Positions 52,843 through 56,600 of a DNA stretch of 64,000 nucleotides are shown piece after piece. How positions within the stretch are numbered: the first letter of the stretch is position 1; each line of letters opens with the position of its first letter. Origin of the DNA: Thamnidium elegans (lineage: Eukaryota > Mucoromycota > Mucoromycetes > Mucorales > Mucoraceae); assembly GCA_025201345.1 (NCBI GenBank), contig JAIXMG010000010.1:434001-498000 (forward strand). Direction: 5' to 3'. The notes under the pieces were generated by a model. The model saw nothing but the letters and a program-made list of their open reading frames with translations, searched no databases and was not told the DNA's origin. The translations under genes and the position numbers were made by a program.

Positions 52843-53452
52843 TTATTCCTAATAAAAAGAAGTGTATTAGTATAATGAAAAAGACCTCTCAAATTTTTTT
52901 ATGAAGCTGATAAACTTACCTTTTGGAAAACGTAGGTCAAGTGACATTTACCACAGTATTGACGATCCTTATGCTTGGCCATGAAGACACCAGCACCACA
53001 AGTGGCGTTAGGACACTCACGACGGAGACGGGTGATCTTACCAGATTCATCAACCTTATAGAACTTCAAGATAGCCATCTTAACCTTGGTACGCTTGTGC
53101 TTGATCTTCTTGGGGGTGGTGTAGGTCTTCTTCTTTCTCTTCTTACCACCACCGAGGAGTTCGGCGTTGAGGTGGAGGGTAGAGTTATCTTGGACACCGT
53201 AAAGGGCAAGAGCCTCAGAGTTTTGGAGAGACTTACCAGCGAAAGAGAGACATTGGAAATCAGCGTCGATACCTTTATTCGTTGAAATATGTCAAAAAAA
53301 GTTTTTTTTTTTTATATTTTATAATTCGTGTTTTTTTTTTTTTTTTTACCTTCACGGGCAGCGATCATAGACTTAACATTCTCAACAGAGGTGGCAGAGG
53401 TAACCTCGAGAGCGAGGGTGTTACCGGCAAGGGACTTAACGAAGAGTTGCAT
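52843..53452 (-). CDS. Divergent ubiquitin-like domain fused to ribosomal protein eS31 (RPS27A)
   Basis: Predicted 153 residues in three exons: 53452-53350, 53272-52920, 52848-52843 (last codon and stop; this tiny exon is inferred from a TTTTTATTAG acceptor). Residues 1-77 have the ubiquitin fold pattern but low identity: [17 protein letters not shown] at the start, GLY-rich end LLGGG. Lys6, 27 and 48 positions are kept; 11, 29, 33 and 63 are replaced by N, M, R and D; Ile44 is Ser, Arg42 Cys, and tail residues 72-74 read ELL. The eS31 half is normal: [20 protein letters not shown], then zinc ribbon [14 protein letters not shown] and [11 protein letters not shown]. The ribosomal part goes to the 40S beak after cleavage behind the diglycine. 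The released domain probably cannot act as ordinary ubiquitin. Confidence 0.9.
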
Positions 53453-53681: not shown

Positions 53682-56600
53682 ATGGCACCTTCTAAACTTT
53701 ATGACTTTGACTTGATAGAAGCTGACGATGAATTAGAAACTGTAAAATACCCCCTCCTAACATGGAATAAAACAAAACTTGATTTAACATCTCGTTTATT
53801 AGGAATTATCAAAACTCTACGCGAACCATCGTGCGGCAGCAGAAAACAAATCTGAATTAGAATTGCATAATTATCTTCAAGACAGAGTAAAGTTATTCAT
53901 TGACTAGCATAGGCCTTAAAGCAGCATATCTAATTATTGGATTTTTTATTATTGTTATTTAGGCGTCTATCAACAAGAAAGAATATCATGATGTTGTTTG
54001 CGCATTATTATATGGCGTTTTAACTGAACCTGAAAATGCACGCTTGGTAAAAAAAAAAAAAAAAAAATTGATTTACAGTCGTATTTTGTTGCTTAAAGAT
54101 ATACCAATTACATAGTTTTTTCAGTCGATCAGTTTTGTAAATAGAGATCAGTTTGGAAATATCATCATGAAATTACAAGCATTGATTATATCCATCAAGT
54201 TCCAAAGCCTTAAACTTCAAGTTCGAGAACAAGTAAAAAAAAAATATATATATATATGTATGTTATCGTTTCACAAACTGATGAATTAAAAAAAAAACTA
54301 TAGATATTTTGGTTGATTAGTGAGTTGACTAGTTTGGGTGTACAAAATGTTGATTCGCTTTATTTATGTTTATTACGACAAATTCGTGGTGGCGATTTAA
54401 GTCAACCTAATTTAATATTATGCGATCAATTATTGAAATTATGCGAACTTCATAAATCGTGGCTTGACTCCAATATGAGATTAATACCAACTTTCGTATA
54501 CACGTATTTAAGAGTCATTGCAGATCATAAATCTACTCATCTTCAGCCATTACAACAAAAAGAAATCAAATTCGTCATCACATTATTAAAAGAAAAGGTA
54601 CGTACACCAAAACATATGAAACTACCTACTAAAAAAAAAAAAAAAATCCTTGAAAAAAATAGTGGATATTATGTTGCGATATTGGCAGAGACTTAATTAG
54701 AGTATTACACGACTTATCAATAACCATTCCCGAATTCAGTGAATTCTGGCAAGATTTATTAAACAATCCACAAAAGCTATCCCCCAGATTTGGAGGTATC
54801 GAAACTTTATTAAAGACGCCTACTAAAAAGGAGTTCCTTCGATGTCGATTAACACCAGATATTGAATTCAAATTATTATTTATTTTACAAAACGTGAGTA
54901 TCTTTAAATTATAATTACCCAGAAAACTAACAAAAGTATATACACAGTTGAAATCAAATCAATATCAAAGAAATTTAAATTGGTTTATTCAAAGGTTTCT
55001 TAGTACACCTGAATCAGAACCATTTTATGTAGATATCGTTCGTTACTTGGTAGCTGGATGGTACCCTTCTAACCAAATCTTGCAAAGTGATATCGTGCCT
55101 AGGTATGTTGTTATCGGTAGTATGCTTCGTTCCATCAAGAATAAAACTGTTGTCGCCAATGTAAAAACTGCTTTAATCTATGACTGGCTATTCTTTACTC
55201 CCACAGACAATATCATGTTTATAGGTATATATATATATAAAAAAATTGGTTATAACGCCCATTAAACTAACTATTTTAAAAAAAGAACCTGCCATGTTAC
55301 TTATGGAAAGATCTGCTGAACGATATCCTTATATTACGTCTGTGATTATGGAATTCTTAAAAAACTCTGTTGACGAATATTTTCCACCATTGAAAGAATA
55401 TATGGCTCAATGTGTAGCCTGTGGTATGCGAGTACTACTTAGTAAGGGTGTTATTCGTAGTCTGATGCCCATCTACAAGTGTCCATCTACAGAGCCTGCG
55501 ACGAAAGAGTACATGTTGGCCTTATTTGGTGAATTCCTTGGCGATGATACCGCTACGCATACATTACCTACGCCCTCTATGCCCACAAACCACCAGGCTG
55601 CGCCTAGTGTCACAGGAACTCCTAAAACCGAAGGATACTTGACAGAGGAGGAATTAGAGGAAGGTGAAGAGGCACCAATGACACATCACGTTGAGGAAGA
55701 CGATGTTGACGAGTATCTTTATGGAGAATCTGACACAAACACAAAATCTGTACTGAAAGCAAACGAAGCTGAATTAGAAGACGACGACGATGATGAATCT
55801 ATGGACGATAATCCTTTATCAACACTCAGTATCCCATTGACAAACGATGAAGATTTGGATGACATGGACACATCTGTCAAGGAAGGTTCTGCTGCTCCGC
55901 GATCCATTCAAGGTGATGACCCTGAAGACGTAGAGCAAATGGCAACTGACGATGATTACGAAGATGAAGTTGAACCAAGTGAGAATATTCAGTCCAATCA
56001 ATCTTACTGGATCTTTGGTGATTCGTTAAAGAGATTCAAGGAAGCGAGTACTAGTGTAAATGCTGCTCAGAAAGAAGGCGATCAGACACAATACGAAACT
56101 CAGTTGTATATTGCCAAAAAAAGCTTAAAGGAGATTTTAGCTGTATTCCTTCGTATGGCTATACCTGCTGAAACACTAGTTCCTACAATTGGACCCTACG
56201 TACGTAACATGGTGGCATCGCATATGTTATCTCATACCTCTAAACCCGAAAACTCGAATGATTTAGACGGTGTATTGAATGACCCTTCTCGAGATGTATT
56301 TGATTTAATCACGGCGACATTTTGGAGTGTACGTGATAATGACGCTTCTAGAGATAAATTGGTTCGACTGATAGGATGTATATCTCATACGAAGAAAAAC
56401 AAAGGACGCCGTCATACAATTGGTATGCGCTGGTGGGCTTTTATTGCGTCGTAAGTCTCGTTTACTAAAGTGTATTAATTATTTTATTAATTGGGTATCA
56501 TAGACAATTAGAACAAGATGAAAACTCCGAAACACCTACAGTTGAAGAATGGTTTCCTAGTATTTTAAGCAACTACGAAACTTATGTTATGCATGCGTAT

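What the first reader, a model, noticed from the sequence alone, without database searches (positions are those of the whole stretch)
53350..53452. eS31 fusion carries a ubiquitin-like domain that is hardly ubiquitin
Seen: a 77-residue N-terminal domain with ubiquitin length and spacing, but Ile44 replaced by Ser, Arg42 by Cys, residues 70-74 reading NAELL instead of VLRLR, and Lys63, 33, 29 and 11 replaced, while Lys6, 27 and 48 positions remain. Known: eS31 is normally fused to near-invariant ubiquitin; divergent ubiquitin-like fusions are known in a few lineages (FUBI-eS30 in animals, UBL-1-eS31 in nematodes). Inference: here the domain has become a cleavable chaperone for eS31 or a separate modifier, and loss of Arg72 and the Ile44 patch should prevent ordinary conjugation and recognition.
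Basis: partly seen in the sequence, partly recalled or inferred. Interest (0 to 1): 0.75.

Follow-up and report, generated by a model that had tools for sequence, protein, structure and literature searches.

The report
Fungal ribosomal protein with ubiquitin look-alike
In this mould and many of its relatives the ribosomal protein eS31 is made with a ubiquitin look-alike on its front end that keeps the fold and cutting site of ubiquitin but carries changes expected to stop it from tagging proteins; such look-alikes are known in other organisms, so this is a new and unusually constrained example rather than a new kind of thing.

Summary
The genome (34 Mb, Mucorales) has three eS31 genes, and 3 of 3 carry the divergent domain. 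Canonical ubiquitin comes from a five-repeat gene, a two-repeat fusion gene and two ubiquitin-eL40 genes. The domain recurs in Mucorales, Umbelopsis, Calcarisporiella and Mortierellomycetes (69 sequences, 31 named genera). It is under purifying selection (dN/dS 0.07-0.27) and is not merely eroded ubiquitin: the Phe4 patch and LLGG end are kept in nearly all, while Ile44, Val70, Arg72, Arg74 and Lys33 are replaced by an almost fixed set (Ser44, Asn70, Glu/Asp72, Leu74, Arg33). The only full Uba1-type E1 found keeps its Arg42/Arg72-reading residues. Best reading: a private ubiquitin-like leader that helps make eS31, is cut off after Gly76 and stays out of conjugation. Cutting, release and non-conjugation are inferred. 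The kind is known (Caenorhabditis, Giardia, Plasmodium; FUBI-eS30 in animals). My literature searches found no account of this fungal case, but the key 2005 survey could not be read. New member of a known kind.

The parts
53350..53452 (-). Exon 1 of the Ubl-eS31 gene (copy A): Met1 to Glu34 plus the first base of codon 35 (Gly35)
53273..53349 (-). Intron 1, 77 bp, GT..AG, phase 1 in codon 35; the ubiquitin-eL40 genes of the genome have an intron at the same place
   Evidence: eL40 comparison
52920..53272 (-). Exon 2: rest of the ubiquitin-like domain (to Gly76, tail NAELLGG) and eS31 ([11 protein letters not shown]... to QK)
53148..53452 (-). Span of the 76-residue ubiquitin-like domain, intron 1 included
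   Evidence: the two coding pieces translate to exactly the 76 residues
52849..52919 (-). Intron 2, 71 bp, GT..AG
   Evidence: paralogue B has an intron at the same place
52843..52848 (-). Exon 3: last codon (Glu) and stop

Best explanation
A private ubiquitin-like leader. Shown by sequence: a 76-residue domain predicted to have the ubiquitin fold is fused to eS31 in 3 of 3 eS31 genes found here; it is under purifying selection; and it recurs in four fungal groups with a re-specified but nearly invariant 44/70 surface and tail. Inferred: it descends from ordinary ubiquitin. As in yeast Ubi3, it helps eS31 to be made and folded in cis. A deubiquitinase that reads the Phe4 patch, the new Ser44/Asn70 face and the LLGG end then cuts after Gly76, so that eS31 can enter the 40S subunit. 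Glu/Asp72, Leu74 and the lost Ile44 patch keep the released domain from Uba1 and from ubiquitin receptors. Ribosome synthesis is thereby uncoupled from ubiquitin supply, which comes from the polyubiquitin and ubiquitin-eL40 genes.
For: Three of 3 eS31 genes are divergent, and canonical ubiquitin is encoded elsewhere. The AF2 model of the Mucor lusitanicus orthologue (P0001) has a ubiquitin fold, pLDDT about 90 over residues 1-70; Foldseek gives target TM 0.90-0.98 to the single-ubiquitin chains among the 50 rows listed. Over 69 sequences Q2/F4/T12 are kept in 68/69/68; L73, L74, G75 and G76 in 69; S44 in 65, N70 in 67, an acidic residue at 72 in 66. Mean entropy is 0.21 bits for tail 72-76 and 0.07 for the Phe4 patch, against 2.05 for other surface positions. 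A fold-only chaperone has no need of an invariant flexible tail; a protease does (inference). dN/dS is far below 1. Uba1 keeps Gln/Ser/Asp at yeast 576/589/591; R42E plus R72E together block wild-type Uba1 (PMC5290280, passages). Yeast work is cited for a minor cis-chaperone role of the fused ubiquitin and for a need to cut it off (PMC8122580, passages; PMC11274626, passages).
Against: No expression, cleavage or conjugation data. The xUB precedent needed both R42E and R72E, and position 42 is still Arg in 24 of 69. Conserved Lys6/27/48 (63/65/67 of 69) could mean some chain or acceptor use. The match to DUB evolution is weak: switched positions of the USP36-like enzyme are not significantly concentrated in the loops I marked as ubiquitin contacts (4 of 23 against 7 of 90, P = 0.23), and Mortierellomycetes have Asp72 without a basic residue in blocking loop 1 (0 of 9). 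The same reviews report that the yeast precursor is cut so fast that a direct role in assembly is unlikely.
Confidence: 0.6

Rival explanations
1. A second protein modifier: the cut domain is conjugated through its own or a borrowed E1 (for example the NEDD8 E1).
For: The GG end is invariant (69 of 69) and Lys6, 27 and 48 are mostly kept. The 44/70 face is conserved in a new form, as a modifier's receptor site would be. The genome has other ThiF-domain loci (18 exon-wise matches), most of which I did not study. Conjugation of FUBI to a few proteins is reported (PMC10611586, passages).
Against: Only one full UBA_E1_SCCH (Uba1-type) gene was found, with a ubiquitin-type tail pocket; the only other hit is weak and partial. 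Arg74 is lost in all 69. No charge-swapped E1 was seen, but the other E1-like loci were not examined.
Confidence: 0.18
2. A ribosome-retained domain as in Giardia: the Ubl stays on eS31 and is part of the working 40S subunit.
For: A divergent Ub-eS31 that is not cut is reported for Giardia (PMC8122580, passages).
Against: Giardia is said to have an additional alanine between the two glycines, whereas here LLGG is intact in 69 of 69. Uncut ubiquitin on yeast eS31 is reported to assemble poorly and to disturb initiation, though only mildly.
Confidence: 0.08
3. Relaxed drift: the fused ubiquitin is redundant with polyubiquitin and only its fold matters, so it wandered once concerted evolution with the other ubiquitin genes failed.
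For: Other surface positions vary widely (2.05 bits). Failure to be homogenised with the other ubiquitin genes is the published explanation for other divergent UbS27a (PMC10457151, passages). It may well describe how the change started.
Against: Five changed positions (7, 33, 44, 70, 74) are themselves almost fixed (entropy 0-0.37 bits) and residues 73-76 are invariant; drift under fold-only constraint is not expected to give that. dN/dS 0.07-0.27.
Confidence: 0.14

Closest known systems
Divergent ribosomal ubiquitins on eS31 (UbS27a): Caenorhabditis, Giardia, Plasmodium and other protists
   Same: Same place (N-terminus of eS31), strong divergence, ubiquitin fold kept in the Giardia case (all as cited in PMC10457151). 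A solved ribosome chain is named 'Ubiquitin-like protein 1-ribosomal protein eS31 fusion protein' (9bh5, listed; that it is C. elegans is recalled).
   Different: Here the GG end is intact (in Giardia it is broken and the fusion is not cut), and many fungi share one nearly fixed signature (R33, S44, N70, E/D72, L74). I did not compare sequences directly with those of C. elegans or the protists.
FUBI-eS30 (FAU) of animals and other Holozoa
   Same: A ubiquitin-like leader on a 40S protein. By PMC10611586 (sections 9 and 10 read) FUBI conserves the Phe4 patch, an RXLGG end (Leu for Arg74), and Val and Pro at the places of ubiquitin 42 and 49; here F4 is 69 of 69, L74 69 of 69, non-Arg42 45 of 69 and P49 29 of 69.
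   Different: Fused to eS31, not eS30. FUBI keeps Arg at the place of 72; here it is Glu, Asp or Ala. FUBI's Ile44 patch is entirely hydrophobic; here positions 44 and 70 are mostly polar (Ser, Asn). FUBI lacks two residues near position 8; this domain does not.
Engineered xUB (R42E R72E) of orthogonal ubiquitin transfer (PMC5290280, passages)
   Same: Acidic residue at 72 and often no Arg at 42, in a genome whose Uba1 keeps the residues that read those arginines.
   Different: Natural; never Glu at 42 and still Arg there in 24 of 69; no partner E1 with swapped charges was found.

Membership tests
Canonical ubiquitin | Near-invariant 76-residue sequence | tested here: not met
   53% identity to this genome's own ubiquitin; the 69 divergent sequences lie at 41-54%
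Canonical ubiquitin | LRLRGG tail and Leu8-Ile44-Val70 patch | tested here: not met
   AELLGG tail; Ile44 lost in 69 of 69 and Val70 lost in 69 of 69, Leu8 kept in 65
Ubiquitin superfamily (PF00240) | Profile match over the curated cut-off and beta-grasp fold | tested here: met
   61.8 bits against a cut-off of 25.4; fold from the model of P0001, an orthologue, and Foldseek
Ubiquitin-eS31 fusion genes | N-terminal ubiquitin-fold domain, GG junction, then eS31 (PF01599) | tested here: met
Divergent ribosomal ubiquitin variants (Catic and Ploegh type) | Divergent ubiquitin on eS31 while other ubiquitin genes of the same genome stay canonical | tested here: met
   (the ubiquitin of one eL40 gene, L012, was read only from about residue 36 on)
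Divergent ribosomal ubiquitin variants (Giardia form) | Broken GG junction, fusion not cut | tested here: not met
   LLGG intact in 69 of 69; actual cutting not testable here
FUBI | Fusion to eS30 | tested here: not met
   Fused to eS31; neither of the genome's two eS30 matches has a PF00240 match within 100 kb
FUBI | RXLGG tail, Phe4 patch, Val40 and Pro47 (ubiquitin 42 and 49) | tested here: inconclusive
   Phe4 and Leu74 met in 69 of 69; Arg72 in 0 of 69; Val42 in 0 of 69; Pro49 in 29 of 69
FUBI-type maturation by USP36 | Cleavage by a USP36/USP16-class DUB | not testable with these tools
   A USP36-class gene is present (locus L019); no biochemistry possible

The most novel reading that the evidence does not exclude
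Fungi independently evolved a FUBI-like, protease-addressed and E1-proof ubiquitin on eS31, with its tail charge reversed and a re-specified 44/70 face. In the Mucorales, Umbelopsis and Calcarisporiella the USP36-class deubiquitinase changed its blocking loop to match, which makes cutting of eS31 a dedicated licensing step for 40S assembly.
Probability: 0.18. Interest if true: 0.72.

Novelty: new member of a known kind. Interest (0 to 1): 0.46.

Why it matters
Ubiquitin is one of the most conserved proteins known, and a review I read in part calls the reason for its fusion genes a mystery (PMC8122580, passages). A genome in which every eS31 gene found carries a domain that probably can no longer serve as ordinary ubiquitin, yet is kept under strong constraint, helps separate the possible reasons for the fusion: ubiquitin supply becomes unlikely here, leaving help in making eS31 and controlled cutting. 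Mucoromycota can be cultured, so this could be tested. Surveys that keep only proteins with at least 80% identity to yeast ubiquitin, as that review did, would miss these proteins.

Tried and rejected
Pseudogene or assembly error: rejected; the frame and splice sites are intact, there are two paralogues and 66 database relatives.

Canonical Ub-eS31 elsewhere: 3 of 3 eS31 matches in the genome are divergent. In the protein search no entry named as Mucorales has canonical ubiquitin among the 120 listed of 2146 hits, although canonical chytrid fusions are listed; the unlisted hits were not seen.

Compensating E1: the single full Uba1-type gene found is unchanged at the three yeast positions. The other E1-like loci were not examined.

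Co-evolving DUB: I aligned the genome's own USP36-like catalytic domain with 56 relatives chosen by hand from the 120 listed of 1371. Most Mucorales replace the alpha5 Arg (Met in 20 of 24; kept in none of 24) and the Gly before Asn-Thr-Cys (kept in 2 of 24). A basic residue in blocking loop 1 occurs in 23 of 24 Mucorales, 3 of 3 Umbelopsis, 1 of 1 Calcarisporiella, 0 of 9 Mortierellomycetes and 1 of 19 others. But switched positions are not enriched in the loops I marked (4 of 23 against 7 of 90, P = 0.23), the groups are nested by descent, and Mortierellomycetes break the link, so I do not count it as support. The Arg-Tyr pair is old: it also occurs in chytrids and other outgroups, so it is not a mark of FUBI-cutting enzymes alone. 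An exact pattern search for that motif in the genome gave 0 matches. The residue numbers used for USP36 are from PMC10611586; their placing on the alignment is mine.

Literature: no paper in the held library joins ubiquitin-like and S27a with Mucorales, ubiquitin, S27a and divergent with Rhizopus, or ubiquitin and S27a with Mortierella. Two with Mucor (search listing only) look unrelated by title. Catic and Ploegh 2005, said to list 12 further species of which 9 are protists, was not readable here, so an earlier notice of a mould among the other 3 cannot be excluded.

Full report
What is there. On the minus strand, 53452-52843, lies a complete three-exon gene for a 153-residue protein: a 76-residue ubiquitin-like domain ending ...LNAELLGG, then eS31. 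Upstream, on the other strand, is a gene whose exons at 54304-54914 match Integrator subunit 3 (PF10189); its start was not determined.

The genome. The window lies in a 34.1 Mb assembly of 64 contigs. Its USP36-like enzyme is 98% identical over the searched region to one of Thamnidium elegans (P0136), and its eS31 fusion 95% to one of Mucor lusitanicus (P0001), so it is a Mucorales, probably Thamnidium or near it (inference). PF01599 finds three eS31 genes: A (window), B (contig C21, coding region ending about 800 bp from the contig end) and C (same contig as A, about 190 kb away). All three carry the divergent domain with the same NAELLGG tail. Their eS31 parts are identical in protein sequence except for the last residue of C. 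A and B share both intron positions; C has none. Canonical ubiquitin is encoded by a five-repeat gene on C12, a two-repeat gene on C45 that runs on into a zinc-finger-like sequence (AN1 type by recall; no profile was run), and two ubiquitin-eL40 genes, one read whole and one from about residue 36 on.

Origin. Intron 1 of A sits in codon 35, phase 1, and B's is at the same place. The ubiquitin-eL40 gene read whole has an intron at the same codon and phase, and the other shows the same junction sequence. With 53% identity, this points to descent from an ordinary ubiquitin rather than recruitment of another Ubl (inference).

Distribution. Of 137 aligned domains (133 database proteins, the three genes here and a reference), 69 form a block at 41-54% identity to ubiquitin. 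They come from 31 named genera, 19 of Mucorales, Umbelopsis, Calcarisporiella and 10 of Mortierellomycetes (names as, placing by general knowledge), plus 9 unnamed metagenome proteins. Proteins named as chytrids, Zancudomyces, Dimargaris, a basidiomycete and Rhizophagus have canonical ubiquitin in the same listing. Paraglomus (P0113) is intermediate at 67%, with Arg72 kept but Leu74. Both searches list only the best hits or close kin, so absence from other groups is not shown. In a maximum-likelihood tree of 56 proteins the canonical proteins plus Paraglomus form a supported group (100/99), so all divergent ones lie on one side of that branch, which fits one origin but does not prove it. The Mucorales proteins (99/95) split into a group holding C (99/96) and the rest holding A and B (85/79, not strong). 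Phycomyces, Absidia, Hesseltinella, Cunninghamella, Backusella and Rhizopus appear on both sides, so the two paralogues probably predate the order. The root is a midpoint, for drawing only.

Selection. NG86 values for the domain are dN 0.030, dS 0.453 (A-B); 0.318, 1.57 (A-C); 0.336, 1.23 (B-C); ratios 0.065, 0.20, 0.27, with 0 of 1000 bootstraps reaching 1 in each. A-C and B-C dS are near saturation, so those ratios are rough. eS31 is more constrained still: dN 0, 0.005 and 0.005.

What is kept and what is changed (n = 69). Kept: Gln2 68, Phe4 69, Thr12 68, Lys6 63, Lys27 65, Lys48 67, Leu73, Gly75 and Gly76 69. Changed to an almost fixed new residue: Lys33 to Arg 69, Arg74 to Leu 69, Val70 to Asn 67 (Ser 2), Ile44 to Ser 65 (Thr 3, Asn 1), Thr7 to Ser 66. 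Arg72 is lost in 69 (Glu 49, Asp 17, Ala 3). Position 42 varies (Cys 28, Arg 24, Leu 14, His 2, Lys 1). Mean entropy: Phe4 patch 0.07, tail 72-76 0.21, core 0.71, other surface 2.05 bits. After thinning at 85% identity (46 rows) the pattern holds: Leu74 46, Arg33 46, Ser44 42, Asn70 44 of 46. The patch grouping and the burial list are recalled, from general knowledge of ubiquitin.

Reading. The conserved features, Phe4 patch, 44/70 face and tail, lie among those by which USP36 holds ubiquitin and FUBI (PMC10611586, sections 9 and 10 read). In FUBI, Leu in place of Arg74 and an altered Ile44 surround restrict cutting to USP16 and USP36. The fungal domain shares Leu74 (69 of 69), lacks Arg42 in 45 of 69 and has Pro49 in 29 of 69, but carries an acidic residue at 72 in 66 of 69, which FUBI does not. 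I therefore favour a cut, non-conjugated leader. Against ordinary conjugation: Uba1 of this genome has Gln, Ser and Asp at the positions of yeast Gln576, Ser589 and Asp591 (numbering worked out by me from chain offsets), which in engineered pairs were changed to Arg to accept R42E/R72E ubiquitin (PMC5290280, passages). That precedent involves both sites, so E72 alone may weaken rather than abolish charging. Yeast work cited in PMC8122580 and PMC11274626 (passages) says the fused ubiquitin acts as a minor cis-chaperone, that uncut fusion assembles poorly and is unstable, and that cutting is needed; it also says a direct role in assembly is unlikely.

Structure. The AF2 model of P0001, made with 63 sequences, gives a ubiquitin fold with pLDDT about 90 for residues 1-70, falling in the tail and low in the eS31 linker (mean 69.6). 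Foldseek's listed matches are ubiquitins, target TM 0.90-0.98 for single chains.

Known or new. Divergent UbS27a is a known kind: Caenorhabditis, 12 further species in Catic and Ploegh 2005, the Giardia structure (Catic 2007), Plasmodium. I saw the older papers only as cited in PMC10457151 (passages and the first part of the Discussion) and PMC6332867 (passages). My searches found no account of the Mucoromycota case in the open library, which lacks most subscription journals. What seems new is a wide fungal distribution with a nearly invariant new signature and an intact cutting site. I file it as a new member of a known kind.

Not shown: transcription, cutting, the enzyme, conjugation or its absence, and any function of the free domain. 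A link to a remodelled USP36-class enzyme was looked for and is not supported statistically.

Noticed in passing
G000 C45:167483-168300 (L005): Two canonical ubiquitin repeats run in frame into a zinc-finger-like sequence (AN1 type by recall, no profile run). Ubiquitin-zf-AN1 architectures are mentioned in PMC8122580 (passages).
   Followed up: partly
L019 (G000 C64:759998-760816): USP36-class deubiquitinase: in Mucorales the residues before the catalytic Asn-Thr-Cys, the alpha5 Arg-Tyr pair and blocking loop 1 differ from those of other fungi and animals.
   Followed up: partly
L009, L011 against window 52843-53452: Between A and C the eS31 half has much lower dS (0.46) than the Ubl half (1.57), hinting at gene conversion or codon constraint in the eS31 half.
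   Followed up: no
P0008, P0010, P0011: Choanephora, Blakeslea and Rhizopus stolonifer domains look like chimeras: like paralogue A up to about residue 48, like paralogue C after it, suggesting gene conversion.
   Followed up: no
P0013, P0046, P0077: Database models read GGDLHHPKK or GGDLHYPKK at the junction and lack the [10 protein letters not shown] stretch; probably wrong splice predictions.
   Followed up: no
window 54304-54914 (+): Exons on the other strand matching the N-terminal domain of Integrator subunit 3 (PF10189), upstream of the Ubl-eS31 gene and pointing away from it.
   Followed up: partly
P0057: A ubiquitin-S27a fragment named as Klebsiella pneumoniae; probably eukaryotic contamination of a bacterial record.
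   Followed up: no
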